A stretch of DNA of 64,000 nucleotides from Bacteroidota bacterium. Lineage in GTDB: Bacteria > Bacteroidota > JABWAT01. A program made the translations under genes and the position numbers. The notes under the pieces were generated by a model, which saw only the letters and a program-made list of their open reading frames with translations, was not told the DNA's origin and made no database searches. Shown one piece after another: positions 4,470-64,000 of this stretch. The first letter of the stretch is position 1. Each line of letters begins with the position of its first letter. The DNA lies in NCBI GenBank assembly GCA_017303995.1, contig JAFLBE010000019.1:1-64000 (forward strand), written 5' to 3'.

Positions 4470-6007
<1,538 letters not shown>

Positions 6008-11500: not shown

Positions 11501-13666
11501 TACCTGCATGGAAGGTATCAAATCATCAGCACTGTAATAGCTTGTACTTGCATCACCGATAAGAAGTATATGAATTGGCGGTCTTTTCCAGCTCCTTACT
11601 GCGTAACGAATAAAATCACGTATGGCATACGGTGATTTTATTCCATTTGAAAATTCATCGTAAATATCAGAGACTGATGTTGTTAAAACCTGACGGCTTC
11701 TTCCTGAAAGCTTTTCATCATTTACTGATCTTGCATTTAAGATCAATTCTCGATATTCACTATATTGTTTTACTGGAGAAAAGCTACTCTGAGAAATCTC
11801 TTTTGACCAAAATTTATCTGCTGAAATGATGATCATAGATTCATCACGGTCACTATTTTTAAGAGTGGGATTTTCAGGAGTGAGTAAGACTGAAGGAGTT
11901 ACATACTGGATTGCTTCAGGTTTGATTTTTGCATCATCACTAAGTGCTATATATTCCGTTGAAACAGGATTAACAACATAATCCTGGAAAATGGCTCTGT
12001 AAAAACGAGATGAATTAGCTTCCTGACCAGGATAAGATTCAATACTAAAATTGGAAATCTTGCCAACACCTTTTTTATAGATTTCAATTTTTGAACCGGT
12101 AAACTCTTGAATGACGAACTGATAAAGATCGGCTGTTTTTCCATCAGGAATGCGAAAATCAAGGTAGTTATTTTTTGCTGTATACAGTCTGTAATATTCG
12201 ATTTCAATCCAATTCAAGGCGAACTGACGGGAGGCTGCAACGTTCGGAGAAAACGGGTCATAATTTTGGATAAAAATTGATGCATCTGAGCCACCCATAT
12301 AGGCAATAAAGGTAGAGGGTGGAACCTTATATTCAACAATATTTAATTCCTGCCCATTCCATTTATCGGTTCCAGATATTGGGAATCCAAGTGAAAGTGC
12401 TTTTTGGCGGGTTCCAATATCAACCTTAAGATTGTGTTCATTTGTAAATCCGGAACGCTTGGTATAGGTTATTCCATGAAGACCAAGTGTAATCTTTACA
12501 TCACTGAAACTCAATCCATCAGGAAACGGTATTGGTGTTGGGTAACTTGTTTGTTCATTTAATGCAATCTGATTCCAAAACCAATGATCCCTGAAATCCA
12601 CAGTTTTGGTTGTGTCTTTTTTTGATAAAGGTTCAAATACCTTATTCTGTTCAAAATGAACTTTGGAAAGAAAGGATTCACCAATAAGGTTCCTTGGATC
12701 ACCAAGTGAAATCGGTTCTTTCAATTCTCCTGAAATAACCCCAAGTCGGTTACCGCTAATTTCATCAGAATTTAAAACAAGGAAATAAACATTTTTGTTT
12801 GAGAATGGGTCAAAATAGGAATCCTTCATTGGATTTGAACGATTGATTATCAATTCATCGCAGAAAAACTCAATAAAATCTCCATCAGAAAAAAGACCAT
12901 CACCACCATCTGAAATCAGGATGGGTATTTCTTCCCCATTGTTATAGACTTTTATCCGGCGTGAATCTGTATTGTTGAAGTTTAACACATTACCCGGAAC
13001 GTTAAGATCAGAATAGAAAACTTTTGCTATACCAGTCTTTGATATGAGCAAACGAAAAACAATCCCTTTATTTTTATCGAATGAAGGAGTTGAGGATATA
13101 GACTTTTGCAAAACAGGTGATGGCTTCTGTTTAGTCTCAAATATGGAAAGGCCAGAAAGGACAACGGGAGGATTTGAACTTGAACCACCAGTTTCAAATT
13201 GGATATTAGAAATGAGGGTTAGCGTTTTTTGTGTTTGGATCCAGGGTCTTACAATAAAATGATAGTAAACATTCCCTCTGAAATTCAATTGCTTTACAGA
13301 CCAAACAGGAAAAGCAGCATTTGTAAACGGTACTTCTGAAAGGTCATGAACCATTTTTTTTTCAGTTCCGTCTAAAACCTGATCGGACTTTAACCCGGGT
13401 GAGTAACTTGTTTTAAACCAACCCTCTTTTGTAGCTGATTGTCTAATTGAACCCGGATCGTGGCTTAGGAAAAAACCAAAAGCCGGAACCTGATATTCAT
13501 CATCAAAAAAATAATTTTCTGAATTGAATACATCCGCCTGGTTCTCCCCGGATTCAAAAATAAGTACATTTTTCCCAGAATGGGATTCATACATTAAATT
13601 AACCTGAGCAAAACCACCAACGGCAAATACCACCAAATAAAAAGCAATTAAGGCATACTTTTTCAA
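8516..13666 (-). CDS. porU: T9SS sortase PorU-like protein (gingipain C25 peptidase domain)
   Basis: The 1716-residue exported protein carries a C25 gingipain-type caspase-fold domain, roughly residues 620-960. Candidate catalytic residues are His849 (FMGHGGGG) and Cys883 (SLTCYTGAF). A signal peptide lies at about residues 1-20. After the peptidase are several Ig/CARDB-like beta modules and a C-terminal FlgD/sorting-type domain (GGFPNPFQGYQIF, then GYPVATGVYFVKV). PorU removes C-terminal signals from T9SS cargo and attaches the cargo to the cell surface. This protein is longer than the roughly 1150 residues of Porphyromonas PorU. The neighbouring PorV-like gene supports the call. Confidence 0.85.
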   Translation of the reverse strand: MKKYALIAFYLVVFAVGGFAQVNLMYESHSGKNVLIFESGENQADVFNSENYFFDDEYQVPAFGFFLSHDPGSIRQSATKEGWFKTSYSPGLKSDQVLDGTEKKMVHDLSEVPFTNAAFPVWSVKQLNFRGNVYYHFIVRPWIQTQKTLTLISNIQFETGGSSSNPPVVLSGLSIFETKQKPSPVLQKSISSTPSFDKNKGIVFRLLISKTGIAKVFYSDLNVPGNVLNFNNTDSRRIKVYNNGEEIPILISDGGDGLFSDGDFIEFFCDELIINRSNPMKDSYFDPFSNKNVYFLVLNSDEISGNRLGVISGELKEPISLGDPRNLIGESFLSKVHFEQNKVFEPLSKKDTTKTVDFRDHWFWNQIALNEQTSYPTPIPFPDGLSFSDVKITLGLHGITYTKRSGFTNEHNLKVDIGTRQKALSLGFPISGTDKWNGQELNIVEYKVPPSTFIAYMGGSDASIFIQNYDPFSPNVAASRQFALNWIEIEYYRLYTAKNNYLDFRIPDGKTADLYQFVIQEFTGSKIEIYKKGVGKISNFSIESYPGQEANSSRFYRAIFQDYVVNPVSTEYIALSDDAKIKPEAIQYVTPSVLLTPENPTLKNSDRDESMIIISADKFWSKEISQSSFSPVKQYSEYRELILNARSVNDEKLSGRSRQVLTTSVSDIYDEFSNGIKSPYAIRDFIRYAVRSWKRPPIHILLIGDASTSYYSADDLIPSMQVQTVEYGSAASDPWYAMIDGDDIIPDIALGRIPAKTSDEIFAYLNKLKAYEADKNFNGWRNNSLFISGFEESFISDNDTLRNLSSKNYFTDVLHIKELVPGNDPFFGGKSQLINYLNKGQVVVNFMGHGGGGIWADRGLFDIPDVDRLAQSSKLSFVTSLTCYTGAFSEPGRVSLMEKMILTASKGSIGGLGSSGVGWKKNNRYLGESIFRYLLNPKYRNLTSGQLIDLAKFFYRIRYSDYVTYPFLIPNSQIHQYNFLGDPSVILNLPDEDISATLSSQLLGSTDSVKLAFQTEKIQNGTINVKFADRLNQDLFASSSGSFNLSNGSFSGSIPVPSGLKGKEGYLKYYVSDTESDGAGSIKFSYSNVLLNYVTSTDSLQSENNPLSLAVSLQSKVQLINGKITITIVDQVQDIGTLGKKANIGLVNSTAGNEGIIYSNEFDLTKNFNGLWVMTDTIPRNFVKNGYLYKYQVKVTDNSSQDYQFSGYYELKELPDVSAAPQIAGIGSEYYTNTSIGFYYDNGPKIGARVYNNSNLDIDKVRVRFFGGGVVSSDPPFFSGNVLRLGETTISLSRNSDKMVFIPIPPDTVMTPGSVYQLSVQVLADSSEGQREKSYTNNLSKPITIPFDLYEVGKNKRDIVKLPGLSLDFSKLSSESLALYIKKNGSTKINNQPKLNSVNIPELGESAFDLISFDPSVKENFPADVEVTFKYGPESGVASAISLFEFEIKSNKWLSIPTIEDTITKSITSTLKRFGTYRLFRMDDIDPPLVSVSVNGNNLVNNGIVPLKGNYTLVVQDDNGVSRRKESIFISVDGVPISSSDLAIPDTLADGNQMVLNFKQSLSPGNHFLSFSFQDANGNEVKTENLEFTASNKSDFIFYGGFPNPFQGYQIFTFLLNSVATRVQLKIYTVSGQQINKFDTKSATNPLSFFPDQNYTGLGIINVQSSESIFGYQEIFWNGTDLDGYPVATGVYFVKVIISFEDGKSSEKVFKSVRYN

Positions 13667-13781
13667 ATTATATCCTGATTAAAGTTCACCTGCAAGTTCT
13701 TGAAAACTTTACAGATGAACAAGGCAAAAATAAGGGTATAAGCCCACTTTTGTGGTGAGTTAAAACACAAAACCAGATTGT

Positions 13782-16700
13782 TTATTTTCCATGGCAAAGT
13801 TTATATTTCTTACCTGATCCACATGGGCATGGGTCATTTCTGCCAATCGTTTTATCAACCTGAACAGGGGCAACCTTTGCTCTAGGGGCAGCTTCCGGAT
13901 TTCTTTCGCTGGTTTGATTAATGGAATTTCCACTGCCGCCAATTGCCTGCACAGACTCATGGTTTGTTACCAATTGCCGTTTAATTCGTTGCAACTGTGC
14001 TCTTTCCTGAGTCATTTCAAGCATCTGTTGATTTGGAAATGCCTTATACACTAATTGAACAGTTTGTTCTGCAATCTGATCCATAAGTTGGGTAAACATA
14101 TTATAAGCTTCATGCTTGTATTCTATTAGAGGATCACGCTGGCCGTAGGCACGAAGACCAATTCCTTCTTTTAGATCATCAAGTTCACGCAAATGGTCAC
14201 GCCATTTTTCATCAATCACCTGAAGCACAACGGCTTTCTCAAGCAATTTCATGACATCTGTTGTGAGCATTTTCTCTTTCTCGTTGTAAAACTGATGAAC
14301 TGCATCAAATACACGCTCTTTAATTCCGTCCTCACCGACATCCGCAAGTTCCTGTGCAGAAAACTTGATGTGGATCAGCATATTTCTCATGAGAGATTCG
14401 CTCAATTCATCGAGGTGACCTTCCTGAATATATTCAGCTATCAGTTTTTCAACATAGGTTTCAGCCATTTCAAGAATATCAGCTTTTAGCCTCTGATCTT
14501 TTAGTGCTTCACGACGGCGTGAATAGATGATCTCACGCTGCTGATTCATCACATCATCATACTCGAGCAGACGTTTACGAATGGAAAAGTTGTTTTCTTC
14601 AACCTTTTTTTGTGCTCTTTCAATGGATTTCGTGACCATGGAATGTTGAATAACTTCGCCTTCTTCAATTCCCATACGATCCATAATACTGGCAATACGG
14701 TCACTACCAAACATTCTCATCAGATCATCTTCGAGGCTAACAAAGAATTGGGTTGCACCCGGATCACCCTGACGACCAGAACGACCACGTAGCTGACGGT
14801 CAATACGGCGTGATTCATGGCGCTCTGTACCAATAATCATAAGTCCGCCAGTATCAACAACACCTTCTCCCAGCTTAATATCTGTTCCACGGCCAGCCAT
14901 ATTGGTGGCAATGGTTACTGCGCCCTTTTGACCCGCACCTGCAACAATTTCAGCTTCACGTGCATGTTGTTTGGCATTTAATACGTTATGCGGGACATTA
15001 AGCCTTTTCATTGCACGGCTTAACATTTCAGAGATTTCAACAGAAGTAGTTCCCACAAGTACAGGACGGCCTTGTTCTCTCAATGCCTGAATTTCAGTAA
15101 TCAGTGCATTGTATTTTTCTTTCCGGGTTTTGTAGATCAGGTCTTCCCTGTCTTCACGGGTAATTGGTTTATTTGTGGGGATAACAACAACATCCAATTT
15201 GTAAATATCAAAAAACTCAGAAGCTTCAGTTTCGGCAGTTCCCGTCATTCCTGAAAGTTTCTTATATAAACGGAAATAATTCTGGATGGTAACAGTTGCA
15301 AAAGTTTGGGTATCACGTTCAACGGTAACACCTTCCTTTGCTTCAATCGCCTGATGAAGGCCGTCAGAATAACGGCGACCAGGAAGAATCCGACCGGTGA
15401 ATTCATCAACGATAAGAATTTTTCCATCCTGAATCACATATTCATTGTCGATTTCATATAAGGTATAGGCTTTAAGCAACTGACTTACAGTATGAATCCG
15501 GTCACTTCTGTCTGCATATTTGGATTGAAGTTCTTCTTTAATCGAAAGCCTCTGCTCTGCAATAAGACTTTCATCATTTTCGATTTTCGCAACTTCAGTT
15601 CCAATATCGGGAAGTAAGAAAAGGTCAGCATCACCCGATTGCTTGGCAAGAAATTCTCTGCCCTTATCAGTCAGGTTGATACTATGATTTTTTTCTTCTA
15701 TAGAGAAAAACAACTCATCATCAACGATATGCATGTGACGGGAATTTTCACGCATGTACTCATTTTCAGTCGCCTGCATGATTTTTTTGTTGCCCATCTC
15801 ACTCAACATTTTGATAAGACGTGCATTTTTAGGCATACCACGAAAAGCCCGGAAAATGGCAAGTCCACCTTCAGTTTGGTCACCTTCCTGCAGTGCTTTT
15901 TCGGCTTCAGTTAATAATTTGGCAATCAAAGCACTTTGGGCCTTATACAAAAGTTCAACCTGAGGTTTAAACTCTTCAAACTTTTGATCAGATTGTGGAA
16001 CGGGACCTGAAATGATGAGCGGTGTACGGGCCTCATCAATTAAAACGGAGTCAACCTCATCAATAATTGCAAAATTGAAAGCCCGGTGAACCATATCACC
16101 AGCTTCAATTGCCATATTGTCACGCAAATAATCGAAGCCAAATTCATTATTGGTACCGTAGGTGACATCTTTGGCATATTCTCTGACACGCTGCTCTGAT
16201 GTCATGGTATTAAGAATACAACCGACTTCAATTCCATGAAAAGCAAATACAGGCCCCATCCATTGACTATCCCGCTGTGCCAGGTAATCATTTACAGTAA
16301 CAACATGAACACCTTTTCCAGATAAGGCATTCAGGTAAATGGGGAGGGTTGAAACGAGTGTTTTACCTTCACCGGTTGCCATCTCAGCAATTTTACCCTG
16401 ATGGATAACGGCACCACCAATAAGCTGTACATCATAGGGAACCATATCCCATTTCATTTTATTGCCATTGACAGTGTACTCCAACCCTACCAACCGACGG
16501 CAGGTTTCTTTCACAACAGCAAAGGCCTTTGGCAATAAAAGAGCAAGCTGCTCTTCAATAACGTCATGAATATCTTTATCGAGTTGATTTAACTCATCCA
16601 TGATGTCCAGGCGTTCATCAATGGTGATATCTTCCTTCAGCTTTTCAATCAGCACAAGATTGTGATTTTCAAGCTCCTGTTTTGCTGAGGTGATTTGCTG

Positions 16701-16850
16701 CTTAAAAGTTTCAGTAAGACCACGCAATTCATCATCGGAAAGTGATTGAAGAAGTTCGTATTCACTATTTATTTCTGCAATGAGGGGATAAAGTTTTTGG
16801 AGATCTTTTTCATTTTTGCTGCCAAAAAGTTTGGCGAGTATTTTAAACAT
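13782..16850 (-). CDS. secA: Preprotein translocase ATPase SecA
   Basis: SecA drives Sec-dependent export across the inner membrane. The 1022 residues include Walker A MATGEGKT at 157-164, the DEAD-like motif IDEVDSVLIDEARTP, the NBD2 motifs GTTSVEISE and TNMAGRGTDIKLG, and RQLRGRSGRQGDPG. A C-terminal SEC-C zinc motif (DPCPCGSGKKYKLCHGK) binds SecB or ribosomes in other species. The length above 900 reflects the insert common in FCB-group SecA. It lies 115 nt upstream of porU, so the general and type IX export genes are adjacent. Confidence 0.98.
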   Translation of the reverse strand: MFKILAKLFGSKNEKDLQKLYPLIAEINSEYELLQSLSDDELRGLTETFKQQITSAKQELENHNLVLIEKLKEDITIDERLDIMDELNQLDKDIHDVIEEQLALLLPKAFAVVKETCRRLVGLEYTVNGNKMKWDMVPYDVQLIGGAVIHQGKIAEMATGEGKTLVSTLPIYLNALSGKGVHVVTVNDYLAQRDSQWMGPVFAFHGIEVGCILNTMTSEQRVREYAKDVTYGTNNEFGFDYLRDNMAIEAGDMVHRAFNFAIIDEVDSVLIDEARTPLIISGPVPQSDQKFEEFKPQVELLYKAQSALIAKLLTEAEKALQEGDQTEGGLAIFRAFRGMPKNARLIKMLSEMGNKKIMQATENEYMRENSRHMHIVDDELFFSIEEKNHSINLTDKGREFLAKQSGDADLFLLPDIGTEVAKIENDESLIAEQRLSIKEELQSKYADRSDRIHTVSQLLKAYTLYEIDNEYVIQDGKILIVDEFTGRILPGRRYSDGLHQAIEAKEGVTVERDTQTFATVTIQNYFRLYKKLSGMTGTAETEASEFFDIYKLDVVVIPTNKPITREDREDLIYKTRKEKYNALITEIQALREQGRPVLVGTTSVEISEMLSRAMKRLNVPHNVLNAKQHAREAEIVAGAGQKGAVTIATNMAGRGTDIKLGEGVVDTGGLMIIGTERHESRRIDRQLRGRSGRQGDPGATQFFVSLEDDLMRMFGSDRIASIMDRMGIEEGEVIQHSMVTKSIERAQKKVEENNFSIRKRLLEYDDVMNQQREIIYSRRREALKDQRLKADILEMAETYVEKLIAEYIQEGHLDELSESLMRNMLIHIKFSAQELADVGEDGIKERVFDAVHQFYNEKEKMLTTDVMKLLEKAVVLQVIDEKWRDHLRELDDLKEGIGLRAYGQRDPLIEYKHEAYNMFTQLMDQIAEQTVQLVYKAFPNQQMLEMTQERAQLQRIKRQLVTNHESVQAIGGSGNSINQTSERNPEAAPRAKVAPVQVDKTIGRNDPCPCGSGKKYKLCHGK

Positions 16851-17025
16851 GTTAATCCTGTGATTTCAAAATGACCTTAAAGATAGAACTTATATGCCTT
16901 TTATTCAATTTAAAGGCGGTTTTAGAGGTACTGATTTTGTCATTTACCTGTCATAACTACTTATTAATTAAGAAGAACGGAGTCAGGATTCAAATTATGT
17001 GCCAACTTTGGGCATTCCCATTTCC

Positions 17026-17057
17026 CTTGTTATCCCACAACATTTCTCCTAATTTTG
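17026..17057 (+). promoter_or_regulatory. Predicted promoter of the PorQ-like gene
   Basis: CTTG, 20 nt, then TAATTTTG matches the Bacteroidota-type promoter. Transcription would start near 17064, about 20 nt before the ATG at 17084. This argues against the earlier in-frame ATGs at 16871 and 16997, which lie upstream of the promoter. Confidence 0.55.
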
Positions 17058-17083
17058 CAGAAACAGTTTCCACAGGATTTCAA

Positions 17084-18028
17084 ATGACCCGTATTGCCCT
17101 CTTTTTTATTCTGGTTTTTTCTCCATTGACTCTTTCTGCCCAGGAAACCTGGCAATTTTTAAACTTACCTGTTAATGCAAAACAGTCAGCAGTTTCTGGT
17201 AGTACAGGTATTTATTCAAGAGAAAGTGATGCATTCACAGGAAATCCATCCTTTATTGGTAACGCATCTGCAAATGACCTTATTTTGAGTTATACATCTC
17301 ATCTCGCCGGGATAAAAAGCGGATCAAGCATTTTCGTTACTGACCTCCCCTACACTGGCAGAACAGGTTTTACGGTTCTTTATAATAATTACGGAGCGCT
17401 TACACGAACTGATGTTCTTGGAAATATTCATGGCGATTTTACACCTTCTGATCTGGTAATTGGGGCAACAATGTCATACGACATTGCGGATTCTATTCCA
17501 TTGGGCGCAACAATCAAGTGGGTTTCAAGTTCAATTGATACCTATTCCAGCTATGGTTTATCTTTTGACTTTGGTTCAAGATACTATTTGGGTGATACCG
17601 GGTGGCTGTTCACTTCAGTTTTAAAAAATGTAGGAAAACAGTTAAAAGTTTACCGGATAAAAGAGTCTCTTCCTACCCTTTTAAATATTGGAGCATTCAA
17701 AACCTTGAAATATATTCCACTTACACTTGGAGTTGAAGTTGAGGGACTAAATAATTATGCAGACAAAAAAGGCAGCCCGGTTGATTATTTAGTCGTTTCT
17801 GGCATGATGAAGCCAAATCAATCACTCACCCTGTTTGTTTCAAGTTATCTCGGACAAAGAAACAAATTAAAAACAAAGGGTGGAATCGATCTGTCTGGTA
17901 TTAATTTCGGTGGCAGTCTTAAGTTGAAATCTTTTTCAATTACTTATGCTTATTCAAACATGGGAATAATTGAAGGTATTCACAGAATTGATTTTGGAAT
18001 CAATATTGGCAAGTACCTCTCAAATTGA
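17084..18028 (+). CDS. porQ: T9SS PorQ-like outer-membrane protein
   Basis: From the chosen ATG the product is 314 residues with a clean signal peptide (MTRIALFFILVFSPLTLSAQ). The mature start, ETWQFLNLPVNAKQSAVSG, followed by FTGNPSFIG, matches the PorQ pattern ('FLNLP...A...LG' then 'NPA'). The rest is a beta barrel ending in IHRIDFGINIG. PorQ forms part of the T9SS attachment complex with PorU, PorV and PorZ. The start is supported by AGGA 8 nt upstream, the predicted promoter and the signal peptide; an upstream in-frame extension of 71 codons looks non-coding. Its 3' end overlaps the convergent folate ligase gene by 9 nt. Confidence 0.78.
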   Translation: MTRIALFFILVFSPLTLSAQETWQFLNLPVNAKQSAVSGSTGIYSRESDAFTGNPSFIGNASANDLILSYTSHLAGIKSGSSIFVTDLPYTGRTGFTVLYNNYGALTRTDVLGNIHGDFTPSDLVIGATMSYDIADSIPLGATIKWVSSSIDTYSSYGLSFDFGSRYYLGDTGWLFTSVLKNVGKQLKVYRIKESLPTLLNIGAFKTLKYIPLTLGVEVEGLNNYADKKGSPVDYLVVSGMMKPNQSLTLFVSSYLGQRNKLKTKGGIDLSGINFGGSLKLKSFSITYAYSNMGIIEGIHRIDFGINIGKYLSN

Positions 18029-18586
18029 ACTTTGGCATATATAAGAACCTGATTCAGTTATAATCCTGTTCATTTTTACATCCCAAATGTCTACCGGAAC
18101 AACAGGAAGCAACTGAAAATCAAAGCATAATCCTGCCAAAATGGTATCACTCCTAAGGTTACTTAAAAAGCCATCATAGTAACCTTTCCCCCACCCGATA
18201 CGATTTCCGTCCAAAGTGAAAGCAAGACCTGGAACAAGAACAAGTTCCGTTTCAACCAGATTTGAATCTTCTTCTGGCTGAATTAAACCAAATGGCCCTT
18301 CATTGAGATCACTTAAACTCTTAATTTTTCCATGTACAAGAGTTTTATTAGCAAGTATAACAGGTGCCCAAACCTCAATACCTCTTCTCAATGCCTCCAC
18401 AATTACAGGTAGCGTATTAATTTCACGCTTTTTTTGCATGCCAATAAAGACATGGATAGATTTGACATCATCAAAGTATTCAGTGATAACCTGATCAGTC
18501 ACTTTTTTGCACAAAGAAAGATACTGACTCAATTCAAGTTCCAGCCTTTTTGACTGAATTTCAATTCTCAAATCCTGTTTTGTCAT
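18020..18586 (-). CDS. 5-formyltetrahydrofolate cyclo-ligase
   Basis: The enzyme converts 5-formyl-THF to 5,10-methenyl-THF using ATP, returning stored folate to one-carbon metabolism. At 188 residues it has the usual size. The family signature is clear: LVPGLAFTLDGNRIGWGKGY, with GWGKGYYDGF at about residues 131-140 (ATP/folate site). The N-terminal basic helix (MTKQDLRIEIQSKR) is also typical. It is separated from frr by a strong terminator, so it is transcribed separately. Confidence 0.92.
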   Translation of the reverse strand: MTKQDLRIEIQSKRLELELSQYLSLCKKVTDQVITEYFDDVKSIHVFIGMQKKREINTLPVIVEALRRGIEVWAPVILANKTLVHGKIKSLSDLNEGPFGLIQPEEDSNLVETELVLVPGLAFTLDGNRIGWGKGYYDGFLSNLRSDTILAGLCFDFQLLPVVPVDIWDVKMNRIITESGSYICQSSI

Positions 18587-18601
18587 GATTCACCTAAAAG
18601 A

Positions 18602-18628
18602 AAAAACCCGGAGAGTATCCGGGTTTTT
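18602..18628 (-). terminator. Rho-independent terminator after frr
   Basis: An 11-bp perfect stem (AAAAACCCGGA / TCCGGGTTTTT) with a 5-nt loop and T-runs on both strands. It lies 28 nt past the frr stop and before the folate ligase start, so it should end the pyrH-frr transcript. Confidence 0.85.
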
Positions 18629-18656
18629 AAGATAAAAAGCAAAAGAAAGACTTCGA

Positions 18657-19217
18657 TCAAACTTCGAAAATATCTTTTTCTTTGGCCGCAACATGAACAT
18701 CAATGTCCTTGATGTACCTGTCTGTTAGTTTTTGAACTTCATCCTCAGCTGTTTTAAGTTCATCCTGAGTTATGTGCTTGTCTTTTTCAGATTTTTTAAG
18801 GTGTTCGTTTGCTTCCCTGCGGATATTCCGGATGGCAACCTTTGTCTCTTCGCCGTATTTCTTCACAATTTTAACCAAATCTTTACGGCGCTCTTCATTC
18901 AGAGGAGGAATTGGCAGCCGGATCAGCATACCATCATTTGCAGGATTTAGTCCAAGATTTGCTTCCCTGATTGCCCTTTCAATAGCAGCAATCATGTTTT
19001 TTTCCCAGGGTTGAATGGTGATCAACCTTGCTTCGGGTGTTGCGACAGTTGCCACCTGACTTACAGGCATAGGTGAACCATAATATTCCACCCTGACATT
19101 ATCCAGTAGAGACGGATTTGCACGGCCGGTTCTTACGGTATTAAATTCAAGCTCCATCGCATGGATGCTCTTGTGCATTTTTTCTTCAGCTTCTTTGATA
19201 ATTAATTTATAAGCCAT
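18657..19217 (-). CDS. frr: Ribosome recycling factor
   Basis: RRF splits post-termination ribosomes together with EF-G. The 186-residue length matches. Family stretches include ELNTVRTGRANPSLL-like MELEFNTVRTGRANPSLLDN, VATPEARLITIQPWEKNMI, GLNPANDGMLIRLPIPPLNE and ERRKDLVKIVKKYGEE. It lies 12 nt after pyrH, the conserved pyrH-frr pairing seen across bacteria, and is followed by a terminator. Confidence 0.98.
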   Translation of the reverse strand: MAYKLIIKEAEEKMHKSIHAMELEFNTVRTGRANPSLLDNVRVEYYGSPMPVSQVATVATPEARLITIQPWEKNMIAAIERAIREANLGLNPANDGMLIRLPIPPLNEERRKDLVKIVKKYGEETKVAIRNIRREANEHLKKSEKDKHITQDELKTAEDEVQKLTDRYIKDIDVHVAAKEKDIFEV

Positions 19218-19229
19218 TTTAACCTCAAA

Positions 19230-19958
19230 TTAAACAGGTAATGAAACAACAGAACCAATATTGTCGCCATGAAGAATCCGTTTTAAATTTCCGGCTTCAT
19301 TCATGTTAAATACAACGATAGGAAGTGAATTATCCTGACAGAGTGTAATTGCGGTAAGATCCATAACTCTAAGGTTTTTCTGAATCACATCATTATAACT
19401 GATGTAAGGAAACTTAAGTGCAGCAGGATTTTTTTCAGGATCAGAATCATAAATTCCATCAACCCGGGTTCCCTTAAATATGGCATCTGCTTCTATTTCA
19501 ACTGCTCTTAGAACAGCAGCTGTGTCAGTTGTGAAATACGGATTACCGGTTCCTGCGCCAAAAATAACAACTCTTCCCTTTTCAAGGTGACGAATTGCCC
19601 TCCTACGAATAAAAGGCTCAGCAATCTGCTCCATTTTAATAGCCGTCATCAAGCGGGTGAAAACACCTTTTCGTTCAAGCGCATCCTGCAAAGCCATTGA
19701 GTTGATAACTGTTGCCAGCATCCCCATATAATCGGCCTGAACACGATCCATTCCTTTTGCAGCTCCAGCCATTCCACGGAAAATATTTCCGCCACCAATG
19801 ACTACGGCTATTTCGACGCCCATTTCTTTTACAGCTTTAACTTCATCTGCAAAGTGTTCAAGAACGGTAGGATCAATACCAAAAGATTGATTTCCCATCA
19901 GGCTCTCGCCTGAAAGTTTAAGTAAAACCCGTTTGTATTTTAATTCACTCATTTTCAT
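19230..19958 (-). CDS. pyrH: UMP kinase
   Basis: PyrH phosphorylates UMP to UDP in pyrimidine synthesis. The 242-residue protein shows the amino-acid-kinase fold: [55 protein letters not shown] and the UMP-site region [13 protein letters not shown]. The start could be Met1 or Met3 ([10 protein letters not shown]). It lies downstream of tsf, with a hairpin terminator in the 54-nt gap, so part of its transcription may come from read-through or its own start. Confidence 0.97.
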
Positions 19959-19973
19959 AATTCCAAAGATAAA

Positions 19974-20003
19974 AAAAAAGGTCTCATTTCGGAGACCTTT
20001 TTT
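19974..20003 (-). terminator. Rho-independent terminator between tsf and pyrH
   Basis: GGTCTC and GAGACC, extended by A6/T6, form a 12-bp stem with a 6-nt loop and T-runs on either strand. It sits just past the tsf stop and probably ends or attenuates the rpsB-tsf transcript ahead of pyrH. Confidence 0.8.
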
Positions 20004-20012
20004 CAGTTTTTT

Positions 20013-20894
20013 TTAGGAATGCTCGCCGATCAGGAATCGTTCAAAGCGGGTAACGGCAACCGGTTTCCCGATTTCCTTTGCTACTTCGGCAATTACAGTG
20101 GTGATTGTCTTCGCTGGATCCTTGACGAATTTCTGTTCCAGAAGAACAGTGTCTTCATAGTATTTTTCAAGTTTTCCAGTTGCGATACGATCAATTACGG
20201 CTTCAGGTTTTTTCTCATTACGAGCCTGAGTGCGGTAAATATCGAGTTCCATTTCAATTTTTGCAGTATCAACTTTATCACGGGTCAGAACGGCAGGACT
20301 AGCTGCTGCAACTTGCATGGCAACATCTTTTCCAAGTTCAATAACCTTTGAATTAGTAGCGTCTGTTGTATCAACTACAACCAGTACCCCAAGACGTGAG
20401 CCTGGGTGGATGTAATCAACAACAAATCCGGTTTCAACTTTAGCGAAAACTACTCTGCGGACTTCGATTTTTTCCCCGGTTTTGCCGGTGAATTCAGTAG
20501 CATAATCTACTACAGAACGACCATCAGCAAACGGAGCTGAAGTTGAAAGCAATTCAGCAATGGTTTGAGTTTTCTTTGCAAGTGCAAGGTCAGCAATCTG
20601 GGCAGCGAATCCGCCGAAAGATTCATTTCTGGCAACGAAGTCAGTTTCGCAATTAACTTCAACCAGAATCGCTTCTTTTTTGTCAGCAGAAACACGGGAA
20701 AGGATAACCCCTTCTTTTGCTTCACGATCTGCACGTTTAGCAGCAACAGCCTGTCCTTTTTTACGAAGAATCTCGACTGCCTTCTCCATATCACCAACTG
20801 CTTCAGTCAACGCCTTTTTACAATCCATCATTCCTGCTCCGGTTTTTTCCCGGAGGGCAGCAACGTCTTTTGCGGTAATTTCAGCCATATTCAT
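20013..20894 (-). CDS. tsf: Translation elongation factor Ts
   Basis: EF-Ts is the guanine-nucleotide exchange factor for EF-Tu. The 293-residue protein contains the N-terminal UBA-like module (ALREKTGAGMMDCKKALTEA), the core motif VEVNCETDFVARNESF, the dimerisation region and the C-terminal region. The start is probably Met1 or Met3 (MNMAEITAKD). It follows rpsB by 11 nt, the standard rpsB-tsf operon. Confidence 0.98.
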   Translation of the reverse strand: MNMAEITAKDVAALREKTGAGMMDCKKALTEAVGDMEKAVEILRKKGQAVAAKRADREAKEGVILSRVSADKKEAILVEVNCETDFVARNESFGGFAAQIADLALAKKTQTIAELLSTSAPFADGRSVVDYATEFTGKTGEKIEVRRVVFAKVETGFVVDYIHPGSRLGVLVVVDTTDATNSKVIELGKDVAMQVAAASPAVLTRDKVDTAKIEMELDIYRTQARNEKKPEAVIDRIATGKLEKYYEDTVLLEQKFVKDPAKTITTVIAEVAKEIGKPVAVTRFERFLIGEHS

Positions 20895-20905
20895 TATACC
20901 TTATT

Positions 20906-21751
20906 TCACTGGTTCTTCAGTTGGGGCTTCAGGTGCAGCAGGTGTGCCGGAGCAGCTTCAACAGCTTTCGGGGCAACAACAGGTGCTGGTGCAGCTTCAA
21001 CAGCTACAGGAGCAACAGGCTTAACTTCAGCAACAACTTCTTCTTCAGTTTCAACAGCCACATTCGTGGTCATGTTGGAACCTTCAATAATTGCATCTGC
21101 AATTGCTTTGGCAACGATTTCGATTGATCCGAGCGCATCATCATTTGCCGGAATACCGAAATCAACCAAATCAGGATCACAGTTGGTATCCAGCAGAGCA
21201 AAAACAGGAACGCCGAGACGGCGGGCTTCTGCAACAGCAATGGATTCTTTATTTGTATCAACGATGAAAACTGCACCCGGAAGGCGGGAAATGGAAGCTA
21301 CCCCCTGGAGAACTTTTACAAGTTTCTCTTTTTCCCGGGAGATCATCAGCCGTTCTTTCTTGGTAAACTTGTCATAGGTTCCGTCTACTTCCATCTTTTC
21401 GATTTGCTGCAGACGTTTAACTGATTTACGAATAGTCACAAAGTTTGTGAGCATACCACCCAACCAGCGTTCTACTACGAAAGGCTGTCCGGCACGTCTA
21501 GCTTCTTCAGTCAGGACGGCACGAGCCTGTGGTTTGGTTCCTACGAAAAGGATTTTCTTTCCTTCTGCAGCAACTTTAGCCACTTCTTCGCATGCGATTG
21601 CAAGGTGGGATTGGGTTTTTTTCAGGTCAATAAGGTGGATGCCGTTACGTTCCATAAGAATGTACGGTTTCATTTTCGGATTCCACCGGCGGGTCAGGTG
21701 ACCAAAGTGTACACCTGCTTCTAATAATTGCTTGAGTTCTACTTTTTGCAT
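20906..21751 (-). CDS. rpsB: 30S ribosomal protein S2, with a probable frameshift in its C-terminal tail
   Basis: The core (residues 1 to about 225) is a standard S2: [79 protein letters not shown] low-complexity A/P/V/E tail follows. Near 20942-20947 the reading changes from APV-rich sequence to an uncharacteristic [12 protein letters not shown]. The other frame continues the tail as [13 protein letters not shown] and stops at TAA, 20901-20903. This suggests one missing base, either a sequencing error or a real tail variant. The ribosomal function should not be affected. It starts the rpsB-tsf operon. Confidence 0.95.
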
Positions 21752-21859
21752 TTGAGTCTCCCTTTTTATCCTCTACACTCTTCAACTGATCTGTGAATCC
21801 TGGCAATTTGCCCGGACAGGGCACTGATCATCAGAATGTATGTGTAGTGAATCCAATGA

Positions 21860-22246
21860 TTAACGTTTAGAGAACTGGAATCTTTTACGAGCTTTCGGAC
21901 GACCTGGTTTTTTCCGTTCAACCATGCGGCTGTCGCGGGTTAGGAGTCCTTCACGCTTGAGGCCTTCACGAACGCCTTCTTCTGCGAGCAGGAGACATCT
22001 GGCAATTCCCAGACTTACTGCTCCGGCCTGACCGTTAGGTCCGCCGCCGTGAACGTTTACAATTACATCATACTTTCCTTCAGTTTGGGAAACAACCAGC
22101 GGTTTGCTGACAGCCATTCTGAGGATTTCTGTTGGAAAATAGTTATCGAAAGTACGCTTGTTCACGGTAACTTTACCTGAACCTGCAACCAGGCGAACCC
22201 GGGCAACGGCGGTTTTTCTTCTTCCTACTGCATCAAAATTTGCCAT
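21860..22246 (-). CDS. rpsI: 30S ribosomal protein S9
   Basis: S9 is a small-subunit head protein whose C-terminal tail reaches the P-site tRNA. All 128 residues fit: the N-terminal VGRRKTAVARVRL, the middle VHGGGPNGQAGAVSLGIARC, and the basic tail PGRPKARKRFQFSKR ending in the conserved SKR. It is 23 nt downstream of rplM, the universal rplM-rpsI pair. Confidence 0.98.
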   Translation of the reverse strand: MANFDAVGRRKTAVARVRLVAGSGKVTVNKRTFDNYFPTEILRMAVSKPLVVSQTEGKYDVIVNVHGGGPNGQAGAVSLGIARCLLLAEEGVREGLKREGLLTRDSRMVERKKPGRPKARKRFQFSKR

Positions 22247-22269
22247 TTAGTTCTTTTCTCCTCTTGTCA

Positions 22270-22716
22270 TTATTGAATGACGTAAGGTTCTGGTGTCTGG
22301 GCCTGATGGTTATGAACCGATCCCTTGAAAACCTTAACCTTTTTGAGTTGTTGTCTTCCCAATGTGTTCTTGGGAAGCATTCCCTTGACCGCATTTTCGA
22401 TTATAAATTCTGGATTGGTAAGTTTAACGTCCTTGAACTTTTTAAACTTATCTCCGCCTGGATAACCGGAATAATGGAAGTATTCCTTCACATTTTCTTT
22501 ATTTCCGGTCAAAATGACCTTTTCCGCATTAATAACGATGACGAAATCACCGGTATCTGTGTGCGGAGTGAACTGAGGCTTATGTTTGCCTCTCACCAAT
22601 CTGGCAACCTCTGTTGCTAATCGACCCACCACGAGACCACTGGCGTCTATGACCCACCATTTGGCTTCCACCTCGAAGGGCTTAGCACTAAAGGTTTTAA
22701 AACTGTTATGATCCAC
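22270..22716 (-). CDS. rplM: 50S ribosomal protein L13
   Basis: The 148-residue protein matches L13: [59 protein letters not shown] and a C-terminal VYKG-like segment ([16 protein letters not shown]). It leads the rplM-rpsI operon from a predicted promoter 65 nt upstream. Confidence 0.98.
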
Positions 22717-22780
22717 AGTTTACTCCTTTGTTTTTTTGTTTCAGTTATTTGTTTCTATTACAGTTTACAAGAATAGCCTG

Positions 22781-22812
22781 CAAAGGTAGTAAAATCTAAT
22801 TGGTAAGTCAAT
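22781..22812 (-). promoter_or_regulatory. Predicted promoter of rplM-rpsI
   Basis: On the minus strand ATTG, 20 nt, then TACCTTTG. The -7 octamer is identical to that before the DEAD-box helicase gene. The expected start near 22775 gives a leader of about 59 nt. Confidence 0.6.
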
Positions 22813-22835
22813 TTAAGGATAGGACAAAAAATTTC

Positions 22836-22866
22836 GGGTTACGGGTTACGGGTTACGGGTTACGGG
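22836..22866. repeat. Heptameric tandem repeat GGGTTAC, 4.4 copies
   Basis: Four perfect GGGTTAC units plus GGG. The same heptamer in the opposite orientation (AACCCGT) recurs in the gap at 57653. It is not near a chromosome end in any visible sense, so the resemblance to telomeric repeats is probably coincidental. Confidence 0.95.
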
Positions 22867-22892
22867 AATAAATATCTTTTCTGTAAGGTGAC

Positions 22893-22931
22893 ATTCGCAA
22901 TTCGCAATTCGCAATTCGCAATTCGCAATTC
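22893..22931. repeat. Heptameric tandem repeat ATTCGCA, 5.6 copies
   Basis: Five perfect ATTCGCA units plus ATTC. Two units of the same heptamer occur at 49216-49232, in both cases shortly after TTTTCTGTAAGGT. Confidence 0.95.
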
Positions 22932-23020
22932 CTGAATATTTAAATGGTTTTTTGTCTTCAATTTCAATATTTTAGCCTGTAACAACATTCTACAACCAGA
23001 AACGAAGTCAGGACCCCGTT

Positions 23021-24214
23021 ATGCCTTCAACTGATTTTGACCGGATCAAACGTCTTCCCCCTTACATCTTCGGTGTTATCAATGAGAAAAAATATGCGCT
23101 CAGACGCCAAAACATTGATATTATCGACCTTGCAATGGGAAATCCCGATTTACCAACACCCAAATTTATTGTAAACAAACTTACTGAGGCTGCGGGTAAA
23201 GGGAAAAACCATCGGTATTCCATATCAAAGGGAATTTTCAAACTCAGAGAAGCACTTGCTGACTGGTATTTAAGGAGATTCAATGTTGAGTTGGATCCCA
23301 ATAATGAGATTGTTACTACCATTGGTTCAAAAGAAGGACTCGCCCACCTCATGTTTGCCACAATGGATCGTGGTGATACGGTTTTGGTTCCGAATCCGAC
23401 CTATCCGATTCATACTTATGCTGCTGTAATTGCAGGCGCACAGGTACACCACGTTCCGATGCCGGAAAACGAAAATGATTTCATGGCCAATATCAAAAAA
23501 TCATTCGAAACAACCTGGCCAAAACCAAAAATGATTTTGACTTGTTTTCCAAGCAATCCGACTGCCTATGTCGCCAGCCTTGATTTTTTTACTGAACTTG
23601 TTGCTTTTGCAAAATCAAAAGATGTCTGGCTAATCAATGATCAAGCCTATGCAGAACTGACGTTTGAAGGTGATCCTGTTTCTATATTACAGGTGCCCGG
23701 AGCTAAGGATATTGCAGTTGAATTTTATACGCTTTCAAAGACATATAATATGGCTGGCTGGCGTGTTGGGTTTGGTGCCGGAAATCCAACTTTGGTTGGT
23801 GCGCTTACCAAAATCAAAAGTTATCTCGATTATGGTATGTTTCAACCCATTCAGATTGCAGCAACTGTAGCCTTAAATGAAGGAGATGCCTACATTCCTG
23901 CTATAAGGGAAACTTACCGGAAACGCCGTGATGTCTTAGTTGACGGAATGCTGAAAATGGGCTGGGAAGTTTCACGCCCGAGCGCATCGATGTTTGTCTG
24001 GGCAAAAATCCCGGATTTTGCACCAACTCAAAGCTCAGTTGAGTTTTCTTCTCTGGCTTTAGAAAATGCTCATGTGGCATTCAGTCCCGGTTTGGGATTT
24101 GGTTCAAACGGAGAAGGATATGTCAGAATTGCTCTTGTTGAAAATGAACTTAGAATTAAACAGGCCTTGCGCGGAATGAAACAATGGCTTAATCCGCCCG
24201 GAAGTCACAAATGA
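23021..24214 (+). CDS. Class I/II PLP-dependent aminotransferase, AlaC-like
   Basis: The 397-residue protein is a fold-type I aminotransferase. The N-terminus RLPPYIFGVINEKKYALRRQ and IIDLAMGNPDLPTP resemble E. coli AlaC (glutamate-pyruvate transaminase). The PLP lysine is K240 in TLSKTYNMAGWRVGF, with NDQAYAELTF supplying the pyridine-binding Asp. FPSNPTAY replaces the more common NNPTG motif, as in AlaC. The next gene starts within its stop codon (ATGA), so the two aminotransferases are coupled. Substrate is most likely alanine/2-oxoglutarate, but diaminopimelate-type aminotransferases share this fold. Confidence 0.88.
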   Translation: MPSTDFDRIKRLPPYIFGVINEKKYALRRQNIDIIDLAMGNPDLPTPKFIVNKLTEAAGKGKNHRYSISKGIFKLREALADWYLRRFNVELDPNNEIVTTIGSKEGLAHLMFATMDRGDTVLVPNPTYPIHTYAAVIAGAQVHHVPMPENENDFMANIKKSFETTWPKPKMILTCFPSNPTAYVASLDFFTELVAFAKSKDVWLINDQAYAELTFEGDPVSILQVPGAKDIAVEFYTLSKTYNMAGWRVGFGAGNPTLVGALTKIKSYLDYGMFQPIQIAATVALNEGDAYIPAIRETYRKRRDVLVDGMLKMGWEVSRPSASMFVWAKIPDFAPTQSSVEFSSLALENAHVAFSPGLGFGSNGEGYVRIALVENELRIKQALRGMKQWLNPPGSHK

Positions 24215-60769: not shown

Positions 60770-60897
60770 CAACTTACTTGTGCTATGAATTCGCCCGCCC
60801 CTGCCCAGGCAACATCCTTAACGTTGCAGTGATTCGGTGTCCGGTTAGATGAAATTGAGTGGAAGAATTCCGGCACCACACTAAAAAAAGGGTACAT

Positions 60898-62724
60898 ATG
60901 TCCGATTTCCTATCTTTTGGTCTCCATGAGACCATTCTCCAAGCTATTGCTGAACTGGGATTTGAAACTCCCACTCCAATTCAAGAAAAAATGATCCCCC
61001 ATTTGCTGAATAATGCAGGCGATGTGGTTGGTCTTGCTCAAACCGGAACCGGCAAAACTGCCGCATTTGGTTTGCCAATTCTTAATTTTATCAATCCGAA
61101 AAGTCGCTTACCTCAGGCTCTGGTTTTAAGCCCGACACGTGAACTTGCCATGCAGATTTCCCGTGATCTCGAGTCTTTCTCCAAATTTATGCCAGGCGTT
61201 TCCATTGTTTCTGTATATGGTGGTGCTCCCATCGACAAGCAGATCAGAACGATTCAACGTGGCGTCCAGATCGTGGTTGCAACTCCCGGCCGGATGCTCG
61301 ATCTGATTAACCGCCGGGTTGTCGATTTTTCAAAAATTGAATATCTCGTGCTTGATGAGGCCGATGAAATGCTCAACATGGGATTCCGTGAGGAGCTCGA
61401 CGCCATTCTCGAAGCCGTTCCGACTGAAAGAAATACACTGCTCTTCTCTGCAACCATGCAGCCTGAAGTGAGCCGTATTGCTTCCAAGTATATGAAAAAA
61501 CCGACCGAAATTACCGTCGGAAAGAAAAATGCCGGATCTGCAACCATTGAACACATTGTTCACCTGATCCATGAAAAAGATCGTTACGAAGTGGTTAAAC
61601 GGATCGCCGATTCAAACCCTGAAATTTACGGGATCATTTTCTGCAGAACCCGGATCGAAACTCAGGATGTGTCTGATAAACTCAGAAAAGATGGTTACCT
61701 GGCTGAAGCTTTGCACGGTGATCTGTCCCAGTCTCAGCGTGATTATGTGATGGGCAAATTCCGTGACGGACATATTCGTCTTTTGGTTGCAACCGATGTT
61801 GCTGCCCGCGGACTTGATGTGAACAATCTGTCACACGTTATCAATTATAACCTGCCTGATGATGTTGAAGTTTACACGCACCGTTCAGGCCGTACAGGTC
61901 GTGCAGGAAAAACCGGGATTTGTATTTCAATAATCAACATGCGTGAGAAATTCAAGATCAAATCTATTGAGCGCACCATTCAGTCTATGGTTACGATTAA
62001 ACCCGTTCCGACTGGCGTTCAGATTCTTGAAAAACAGTTACATGCACTGATTGACAAAATTCATACGGTTCAGATCAGAGAAGAAAATATTGCACCGTTC
62101 ATGGCCGATATTCAGGATAAACTTGAGCACATCGACCGTGAAACGCTGATTAAGAAAATGATTTCAATGGAGTTCAATCAATTTTTTGAGCGTTACTCTA
62201 AAATGAAAGATTTGAATGTTGGTGAATCATTTGGTGATCGCCCAGAAAAACGACGCAGCGAAGGCGATTATGCAGCCCGTCCAGAACGTGACTTTTCTGC
62301 TTCCCGGGACCGTGTAGAACGTGGTGATCGTGGTGATCGCCCTGATCGTGGACCACGTCCTGAAAGATCAGAAGCATCTGGTGCAGAAGTTGGATTTTCA
62401 CGTATTTTCATCAATTTAGGTAAAACTGACGGATTAAGTCCTACCGTTTTGATCGGAATCATCAACGAAATCAGTAAAAAGAGAAACGTTGAAATTGGCC
62501 GTATCGATCTGGGTAAAACTTTCACCTTCTTTGATATTGACGAGAAATTCGCATCCAAAGTTGTTGAAGATTTCCAGGGTTCAGAATACAATGGCCGTCC
62601 GCTTCAGGTAGAATTTGCAAAGCCGGATAATGGACCTGCAAAAAAGTTCAAACCTGAATTCCGTGAACGTGGCGGAGCAAGAAACAGCAGCGGTGGCGGA
62701 TATAAAGGCCGTCCGAGAAGATAA
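60898..62724 (+). CDS. DEAD-box ATP-dependent RNA helicase
   Basis: The 608-residue protein carries all core motifs: Q-motif FETPTPIQEKMIPHLL, I AQTGTGKT, Ia PTRELA, II LDEADEML, III SAT, V ATDVAARGLDV and VI HRSGRTGRAG. A helical linker is followed by a low-complexity R/D/E/G-rich segment (about 455-500) and a C-terminal DbpA-type RNA-binding domain (FSRIFINLGKTDGLSPTVLI, GRIDLGKTFTFFDI), ending in a G/R tail. It is closest in layout to DeaD/CsdA-type helicases. The start at this ATG fits the promoter; an ATG 13 codons upstream is possible. Confidence 0.93.
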   Translation: MSDFLSFGLHETILQAIAELGFETPTPIQEKMIPHLLNNAGDVVGLAQTGTGKTAAFGLPILNFINPKSRLPQALVLSPTRELAMQISRDLESFSKFMPGVSIVSVYGGAPIDKQIRTIQRGVQIVVATPGRMLDLINRRVVDFSKIEYLVLDEADEMLNMGFREELDAILEAVPTERNTLLFSATMQPEVSRIASKYMKKPTEITVGKKNAGSATIEHIVHLIHEKDRYEVVKRIADSNPEIYGIIFCRTRIETQDVSDKLRKDGYLAEALHGDLSQSQRDYVMGKFRDGHIRLLVATDVAARGLDVNNLSHVINYNLPDDVEVYTHRSGRTGRAGKTGICISIINMREKFKIKSIERTIQSMVTIKPVPTGVQILEKQLHALIDKIHTVQIREENIAPFMADIQDKLEHIDRETLIKKMISMEFNQFFERYSKMKDLNVGESFGDRPEKRRSEGDYAARPERDFSASRDRVERGDRGDRPDRGPRPERSEASGAEVGFSRIFINLGKTDGLSPTVLIGIINEISKKRNVEIGRIDLGKTFTFFDIDEKFASKVVEDFQGSEYNGRPLQVEFAKPDNGPAKKFKPEFRERGGARNSSGGGYKGRPRR

Positions 62725-62995: not shown

Positions 62996-63040
62996 ATAAC
63001 TTATAACCCTGAATCAAAAAGTTGGGTTACCGTTCATCTT

Positions 63041-63061
63041 AACTTGTAACTTGTAACTTTC
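63041..63061. repeat. Heptameric array AACTTGT
   Basis: Two perfect AACTTGT units followed by AACTTTC; the reverse complement of the TACAAGT-type array at 62726. Confidence 0.7.
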
Positions 63062-63078
63062 CCATTTCTCCCTAAAAC

Positions 63079-63108
63079 AAAAAAAGTCCGCTTTTCAGCG
63101 AACTTTTT
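63079..63108 (-). terminator. Orphan minus-strand terminator
   Basis: A stem of 11 bp with one C/A mismatch (AGT-C-CGCT / AGCG-A-ACT plus A/T) and loop TTTC, with a seven-T run on the minus strand. No minus-strand gene precedes it in the window, except the tRNA 3'-end-like fragment 5 nt away. Confidence 0.7.
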
Positions 63109-63112
63109 CTTG

Positions 63113-63128
63113 TGGGCAGAGAGGGAAT
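63113..63128 (-). other. tRNA 3'-end-like fragment, possible attachment-site core
   Basis: Read on the minus strand: ATT (end of a T-loop), CCCTC (T-stem 3' strand), TCTGCCC (acceptor 3' strand, expecting GGGCAGA at the 5' end), A (discriminator). The rest of a tRNA is absent to the right. This fits a phage or ICE att core at a tRNA 3' end. Confidence 0.4.
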
Positions 63129-63152
63129 GCAACTTATGATATCCTCTGATTT

Positions 63153-63225
63153 ATTAACATAAGCATATATAGGCTATATTACTATATTTATAGCACTTAT
63201 GCCCTAAATATATACTTATGTTAAT
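63153..63225. repeat. Inverted repeat, 17 of 18 matched, in the element end
   Basis: Arms at 63153-63170 (ATTAACATAAGCATATAT) and 63208-63225 (reverse complement with one mismatch), 37 nt apart. ACTTATG also occurs at 63133, 63195, 63214 and 63284 (forward), which may be recombinase or excisionase sites. Confidence 0.85.
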
Positions 63226-63251
63226 CCCGATATGCACATAGATAATCCATA

Positions 63252-63299
63252 ATGTTGTTACCTATGTTGTTACCTATGTTGTTACTTATGTAGTTACCT
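63252..63299 (+). repeat. Four direct 12-bp iterons ATGTTGTTACCT
   Basis: Copies at 63252, 63264 (both perfect), 63276 (ATGTTGTTACTT) and 63288 (ATGTAGTTACCT), head to tail. They overlap the -33 element of the integrase promoter. They may be arm-type binding sites or autoregulatory operators. Confidence 0.92.
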
Positions 63300-63309
63300 A
63301 CTAATTTTG
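63278..63309 (+). promoter_or_regulatory. Predicted promoter of the integrase-like gene
   Basis: GTTG, 20 nt, then TAATTTTG. The -33 element is inside the third iteron. The expected start near 63316 leaves a leader of about 17 nt. Confidence 0.55.
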
Positions 63310-63332
63310 TACAGAGAAAGCAGGTAATGAAT

Positions 63333-64000
63333 ATGGCAACAGCAGGTTTAAATATTTTTCTCTCACTCAAACCTAAAGTCACACCAAAGGGTGTCGAACA
63401 AAATCCGGACGACGAATATCAAATATATATAGATTGTAGTGCTGGAAGGCAAAATCGAAAAAAAGTTTACACTGGATTAAAAGTCTACCGAAAAGACTGG
63501 GACGAAAAACGGAAGGCAATAAAAAGGACAGATTCTGATTGGTCCCCCAAAAACCGGGTTTTGGATCTATTTCTTATGAAGTCAAAAGAAATTGCAGCTC
63601 AACTCTTGCAAGAAGGTGTCGACAATGGAAGAATTCAGGAATGGAAAAAAAGGGTCGTAAACTATATACGACCAAAGCAATTACCCCCACCTGTTATTTA
63701 TGACTTTGAAAAGGCCTATTTTGATGTATTGGAACTTCAAGGCAAAAAAATCAAAGAGTCAAGCCAGCAGGTTTTTCATTCAGCATTCAATAAGTTAAAA
63801 GAATACTGTTTAAATAATGCAATTCCCCTTGATCCAACATTTTTTACCAGTGACTTTATGCAAGGTTATCTAACATTTCTTTATGATAAAGTAGGACTCA
63901 CCGACAATTCAGCTAACAAAGCGATCAGGACAATACAGACAGCATTAAGAAAATTAATGAAAACTGAGGATTTTAAGTCGTCAGGGATAATAGTTCCGAG
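63333..64000 (+). CDS. Tyrosine recombinase/integrase of Bacteroidota type, N-terminal part
   Basis: About 222 codons are visible before the right edge. The N-terminus (ATAGLNIFLSLKPKVTPKGV) with YQIYIDCSAGRQNRKKVYTG and VYRKDWDEKRKAI matches the arm-type DNA-binding domain of Bacteroidota integrases. Next comes a SAM-like core-binding domain (IYDFEKAYFDVLELQGKKIK, then SSQQVFHSAFNKLKEYCLNN, DFMQGYLTFLYDKVGLTDNS). The catalytic domain with R, H and Y is outside the window, so activity cannot be judged. The ATG at 63333 has AGG 8 nt upstream; ATG 63327 is also in frame. It probably belongs to an integrative element. Confidence 0.8.
   Translation, partial: MATAGLNIFLSLKPKVTPKGVEQNPDDEYQIYIDCSAGRQNRKKVYTGLKVYRKDWDEKRKAIKRTDSDWSPKNRVLDLFLMKSKEIAAQLLQEGVDNGRIQEWKKRVVNYIRPKQLPPPVIYDFEKAYFDVLELQGKKIKESSQQVFHSAFNKLKEYCLNNAIPLDPTFFTSDFMQGYLTFLYDKVGLTDNSANKAIRTIQTALRKLMKTEDFKSSGIIVP

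What the first reader, a model, noticed from the sequence alone, without database searches (positions are those of the whole stretch)
63079..63130. tRNA 3' end fragment with an orphan terminator marks a likely element boundary
On the minus strand, 63128-63113 fits the end of a tRNA (T-loop ATT, T-stem CCCTC, acceptor TCTGCCC, discriminator A) and is followed 5 nt later by a minus-strand terminator with no gene of its own. The rest of the tRNA is missing and an integrase-like gene lies just beyond. The natural reading is the duplicated att core left by integration into a tRNA gene, with the intact tRNA at the other end of the element.
Basis: partly seen in the sequence, partly recalled or inferred. 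Interest (0 to 1): 0.65.

Follow-up and report, generated by a model that had tools for sequence, protein, structure and literature searches.

The report
Right end of a tRNA-Phe-integrated defence island
The short tRNA scrap is the scar of a mobile DNA island carrying anti-phage defence genes that inserted into the bacterium's only detected tRNA-Phe gene and rebuilt it at the far end; this is a well-known way for such islands to integrate, here demonstrated by finding the intact tRNA, both ends and an empty site in a sister species.

Summary
Window 63128-63105 (minus strand) is a 24-nt copy (ATTCCCTCTCTGCCCACAAGAAAA) of the 3' end of the genome's only detected tRNA-Phe(GAA) gene, intact on contig C55 and starting GGGCAGA as predicted. 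A same-genus relative (G002) has the empty site: one core, tRNA and 'orphan' terminator contiguous, identical to G000's two joined flanks over 155 nt. So the terminator is the tRNA's own, separated from it by the insertion. The insert brought a replacement terminator. Twelve-bp direct repeats, presumed integrase arm sites, lie on the element side of both ends. A complete 5.9-kb relative in another genus (G003, tRNA-Val) repeats the plan with nearly the same spacing (37/123 versus 41/127 nt). The integrase is of the Arm-DNA-bind_5/SAM_5 type, beside an excisionase-like HTH protein. Contig pieces give at least about 48.5 kb. The far piece carries a type-1 BREX operon with embedded Septu genes and ends in a CRISPR array. 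The middle is unassembled, so one continuous element is inferred. It is a new member of a known kind; general interest is modest.

The parts
63105..63128 (-). 24-nt att core (attR): copy of the tRNA-Phe 3' end plus 8 nt, ATTCCCTCTCTGCCCACAAGAAAA
   Evidence: Exact copy at C55:5976-5999, in and just after the intact tRNA-Phe 5919-5992; the only two exact copies of its 16-mer in the genome
63079..63110 (-). Orphan intrinsic terminator: the native terminator of tRNA-Phe, separated from its gene by the insertion
   Evidence: Folds at -17.0 kcal/mol, z -4.4; follows the intact tRNA-Phe directly in G002
63129..64000 (.). Element DNA inside the window (continues to the end of contig C39, 69530); 31% GC against 40% for the rest of the window
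   Evidence: Absent at the G002 empty site; composition
63252..63299 (-). Four tandem 12-bp repeats AGGTAACAACAT (two exact, two with 1 mismatch): presumed arm-type integrase sites, 123 nt from the core
   Evidence: Two exact copies in the same orientation relative to the core at C55:6037-6060, 37 nt from that core; equivalent pairs flank the G003 element. Binding is inferred
63327..64000 (+). Tyrosine integrase gene (437 aa; stop at C39:64640, beyond the window)
   Evidence: Pfam Arm-DNA-bind_5, Phage_int_SAM_5, Phage_integrase; motif residues R276, H380, R383, H406, Y415 present, with a candidate Lys at 307
60859..62724 (+). DEAD-box helicase gene (DbpA-type), the chromosomal flank convergent with tRNA-Phe
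   Evidence: Pfam DEAD, Helicase_C, DbpA; beside tRNA-Phe in G002 at 96% identity

Best explanation
An integrative element of the tyrosine-recombinase kind inserted by site-specific recombination between its attP and an attB at the 3' end of the single detected tRNA-Phe(GAA) gene. The crossover lies within 24 nt running from the tRNA's T-loop to just past its 3' end. The element's copy of this sequence rebuilt the tRNA on the C55 side and supplied a new terminator there. The adjacent Arm-DNA-bind_5 integrase, probably bound to the 12-bp repeats at both ends, carried this out; the neighbouring HTH_17 protein is the probable excisionase. The cargo known so far is mainly anti-phage defence. Shown: both junctions, the empty site, the duplicated core, the shared repeats and the conserved geometry. 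Inferred: that this integrase acts here, that the repeats are its arm sites, present-day mobility, and that the two contig pieces are the ends of one element.
For: Intact tRNA-Phe with the identical 24 nt. Empty site in G002 identical to the joined flanks over 155 nt (96 left, 24 core, 35 right), core once. One tRNA-Phe hit in G000. The AGGTAACAACAT repeats of both ends are the strongest match between the ends outside the core, and were found at no third place in the genome search with the C39 end. Integrase and excisionase-like genes next to attR. The G003 element has both att copies on one contig, a tRNA-Val target, a 17-nt core, repeats at both ends, a 53% identical integrase and a 58% identical HTH protein, with spacings 41/127 against 37/123. 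Element DNA on C39 is 31% GC against 40%. The integrase has no match at E<=1e-60 in G001 or G002, and a 13.6-kb segment of the C55 part matches them only in short repeats. G001 keeps the same gene (exonuclease/GIY-YIG) upstream of tRNA-Phe as C55.
Against: The two ends lie on different contigs and the middle is not assembled, so a single element is inferred. G002's synteny with C55 holds for only about 100-200 bp upstream of the tRNA, after which G002 has other genes, so the left flank rests on that block plus G001. In G001 the helicase lies 25.7 kb from tRNA-Phe, so G001 is not a clean empty site.
Confidence: 0.95

Rival explanations
1. The two ends belong to two different, tandemly accreted elements in the same tRNA-Phe gene: one with BREX (C55), one with the integrase (C39).
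For: The contigs are not joined; tandem integration at one att site is known for other islands (title of PMC2297512). No integrase was recognised in the C55 part beyond the tRNA.
Against: A tandem array needs a third core copy at the internal junction, but the 16-mer core occurs exactly twice in the genome and the repeat pairs were found at two places only. A third 24-nt copy in unique surroundings would not collapse in assembly, although it could lie in an assembly gap.
Confidence: 0.1
2. A non-specific event (pseudogene or partial duplication of tRNA-Phe, or IS-mediated rearrangement) left the 3' fragment and the integrase is a coincidental neighbour.
For: Degenerate tRNA fragments occur, and IS-like repeats exist in this genome.
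Against: The boundary falls exactly where sequence shared with G002 stops; repeats flank both ends; the G003 element repeats the plan at another tRNA with spacings within 4 nt.
Confidence: 0.02
3. Chance resemblance to a tRNA end.
For: Only 16-24 nt long.
Against: 24 exact nt matching a real tRNA gene, with the same terminator behind that gene in the relative.
Confidence: 0.005

Closest known systems
IntCTnDOT-subgroup tyrosine recombinase elements of Bacteroidetes (CTnDOT, NBU1; PMC8138268)
   Same: Integrase with N-terminal arm-binding, SAM-like core-binding and catalytic domains; NBU1 also uses a tRNA gene (own knowledge: tRNA-Leu); repeats beside the core.
   Different: No direct comparison with IntDOT or IntN1 was made; no relaxase or conjugation gene was recognised in the pieces examined; the element carries BREX, Septu and a CRISPR array.
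10K genomic island of Riemerella anatipestifer at tRNA-Arg (PMC6764341)
   Same: Tyrosine integrase with IntN1-like domain, island at a tRNA gene, direct-repeat att sites; its 53-bp repeat includes an evident terminator hairpin (my reading of the printed sequence).
   Different: There the terminator lies inside the identical repeat; here the 24-nt identity stops at the foot of the hairpin and a different terminator is supplied by the element.
Integrase-bearing defence islands at tRNA genes of Escherichia coli (PMC10121019)
   Same: Defence systems on integrase-bearing islands, many at tRNA loci, often with unclear means of transfer; BREX is among the systems mapped.
   Different: Different host group and integrase type; tRNA-Phe here.
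Complete 5.9-kb element at tRNA-Val(TAC) in G003, C22
   Same: 53% identical integrase, 58% identical HTH protein, same end architecture and spacings, a terminator behind each core copy.
   Different: Only replication-type genes (CHC2 zinc finger, Toprim/DUF6371, DUF3987), no defence cargo recognised.

Membership tests
tRNA-targeted integrative element (genomic island) | Direct repeat of a tRNA 3' end at the two boundaries, intact tRNA at one | tested here: met
   24-nt core at C55:5976-5999 (in tRNA-Phe) and C39:63105-63128
tRNA-targeted integrative element (genomic island) | Empty site with a single core in a relative | tested here: met
   G002:C25, identical over 155 nt, core once
tRNA-targeted integrative element (genomic island) | Integrase gene at one end, apparently intact | tested here: met
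   437-aa open frame, three Pfam domains, catalytic motif residues present
tRNA-targeted integrative element (genomic island) | Excision as a circle | not testable with these tools
   No reads available
IntCTnDOT-subgroup integrases | Arm-binding, SAM-like and catalytic domains of this kind | tested here: met
   PF17293, PF13102, PF00589 above curated cut-offs
IntCTnDOT-subgroup integrases | Phylogenetic placement with IntDOT/IntN1 | not tested
   No tree was built
Integrative and conjugative element | Relaxase and type IV secretion genes | tested here: inconclusive
   None recognised among the ORFs scanned, but not every ORF was scanned and the interior is unassembled
Type 1 BREX (cargo) | brxA, brxB, brxC, pglX, pglZ, brxL in order | tested here: met
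   PADLOC matches for all six on C55 from 7138 to 23847

The most novel reading that the evidence does not exclude
Elements of this family carry, just beyond the att core, a replacement transcription terminator that restores termination of the rebuilt tRNA gene. In G000 that terminator is of the type found at tRNA-Phe of another species (G001), so the attP arm records an earlier host, or G001 keeps the scar of an earlier occupant.
Probability: 0.4. Interest if true: 0.4.

Novelty: new member of a known kind. Interest (0 to 1): 0.3.

Why it matters
It fixes one boundary of a large defence island to the base and shows which chromosomal site it uses. It also defines a small family of integrases with conserved end geometry (core, 12-bp repeats, replacement terminator) that can be used to find and size similar islands at other tRNA genes of this lineage. 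The mode of integration itself is textbook.

Tried and rejected
The other 2-mismatch core matches (C41, C62, C73) have no tRNA and were taken as chance. G001 was considered as an empty site and rejected: the helicase is 25.7 kb from tRNA-Phe and there is no second core, repeat pair or recognised integrase in between. A second integrase relative in G003 (C33, 36% identical) lies at a contig end with no tRNA or repeats found. The genome contigs and viral-contig scans gave only distant integrases (30-38% identical), not followed. Joining C55 to C74 through the CRISPR array is plausible but not proven. Williams 2002 (tRNA att sites) and the NBU1 arm-site paper were not held. No structure prediction was run: the integrase is clear from sequence.

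Full report
The observation. Reading the minus strand down from 63135 gives TAAGTTGCATTCCCTCTCTGCCCACAAGAAAAAGTTCGCTGAAAAGCGGACTTTTTTTG. From 63128 this is the last part of a tRNA T-loop, the 3' half of the T-stem, the acceptor strand and discriminator A; the remainder of the tRNA is absent and ARAGORN finds no tRNA in the window. The hairpin that follows, about 63110-63079, folds at -17.0 kcal/mol, 4.4 s.d. below shuffles.

The intact tRNA. The 16-mer occurs exactly twice in the genome. The exact match spans 24 nt, C55:5976-5999 and window 63105-63128. A search with the C55 tRNA region found this one tRNA-Phe in G000.

The empty site. In G002 (same genus, helicase 96% identical) the helicase is followed by the same terminator and directly by an intact tRNA-Phe. 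Joining the G000 flanks at the core (C55 up to 5975, core, window 63104 downward) gives a sequence identical to G002 for 155 nt, and the G002 locus holds the core once. The 'orphan' terminator is therefore the original tRNA-Phe terminator. In G001 the gene upstream of tRNA-Phe is a 59% identical relative of the exonuclease/GIY-YIG gene upstream on C55, which supports the left flank.

The ends of the element. On the element side of both cores lie tandem 12-bp repeats AGGTAACAACAT: four at window 63252-63299, two at C55:6037-6060, in the same orientation relative to the core. They are 123 nt and 37 nt from the core. Just after the rebuilt tRNA, C55 has a different terminator (-20.7 kcal/mol, z -5.0), so the element appears to have supplied its own. 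G003, another genus of the family, has a complete relative on one contig: an intact tRNA-Val(TAC), a 17-nt core repeated 5,935 nt away, repeat pairs at 41 and 127 nt from the two cores, a terminator-like hairpin after each core copy, and an integrase 53% identical to this one. The match in geometry at a different tRNA is strong support for the anatomy.

Genes. Beside attR lie the integrase (Arm-DNA-bind_5, Phage_int_SAM_5, Phage_integrase), a 319-aa protein without a match, an HTH_17 protein resembling phage excisionases, a D5_N/DUF5906 primase-helicase-like protein and a DUF6371 protein. C39 then ends in a sequence shared with four other contigs, including the ends of C79 and C66 and beginning GGGCATCTCTAGAAACC, probably an insertion-sequence end. 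On C55, after the terminator and repeats, come an HTH regulator, brxA, brxB, brxC, ptuA and ptuB (Septu), pglX, a Schlafen-type protein, pglZ and brxL. More genes follow, and the contig ends in a CRISPR array whose repeat is also at the end of C74. A 13.6-kb distal segment of C55 matches the three relatives only in short repeats, if at all.

Size and limits. The held pieces add up to at least about 48.5 kb (C55:5976-48130 and C39:63105-69530). The interior is not assembled. Exactly two core copies and two repeat sites found genome-wide argue for a single element but do not prove it.

The terminator. A pattern for the C55 replacement terminator (28 fixed positions, up to 3 mismatches) occurs in the four genomes only at this place and behind tRNA-Phe of G001. 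Since many positions are paired with each other, the independent evidence is less than 28 positions, but the coincidence of location suggests common origin. Either the element's attP arm was formed in a host with a G001-type locus, or G001 carries the scar of a former occupant: its helicase is 25.7 kb away with no recognised integrase or second core between. This is not resolved.

Verdict. Integration at the 3' end of a tRNA gene by a tyrosine integrase, with the gene rebuilt by the element, is textbook (own knowledge; defence islands at tRNA loci, PMC10121019; IntCTnDOT-type integrases with arm sites, PMC8138268; tRNA-Arg island with terminator-containing repeat, PMC6764341). The finding is correct and well supported, and the element is a new member of a known kind.

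Noticed in passing
G000 C55:7138-23847 (L014, L046): Type-1 BREX operon (brxA, brxB, brxC, pglX, pglZ, brxL) with Septu ptuA/ptuB between brxC and pglX and a Schlafen-type gene before pglZ.
   Followed up: partly
G000 C55:46657-48067 and C74:30406-31772: CRISPR array with 37-nt repeats split over two contig ends; C74 carries a Cas10-type protein and a reverse transcriptase-Cas1 fusion (789 aa). The repeat was not found in G001-G003.
   Followed up: partly
G000 C55:48055-48130: The last ~75 nt of C55 are abruptly GC-rich (last 90 nt 60% GC) and interrupt a CRISPR repeat; possibly a chimeric contig end.
   Followed up: no
G000 C39:69404-69530, C79:1-126, C66:38413-38539, C23:3158-3256, C35:55470-55579: Shared sequence beginning GGGCATCTCTAGAAACC, probably the end of a multi-copy insertion sequence that breaks the assembly inside the element.
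   Followed up: partly
G003 C22:30942-36893 (L081:943-6894): Complete 5.9-kb element in tRNA-Val(TAC) with related integrase, HTH, primase-type genes and the same end geometry.
   Followed up: yes
G001 C11:895383-895416: Terminator of tRNA-Phe in G001 matches the element's replacement terminator; the pattern matched nowhere else in four genomes.
   Followed up: partly
window 63040-63063 and many places in G000: Short dispersed repeat (taacttgtaacttgtaacttt) gives many weak matches across contigs.
   Followed up: no
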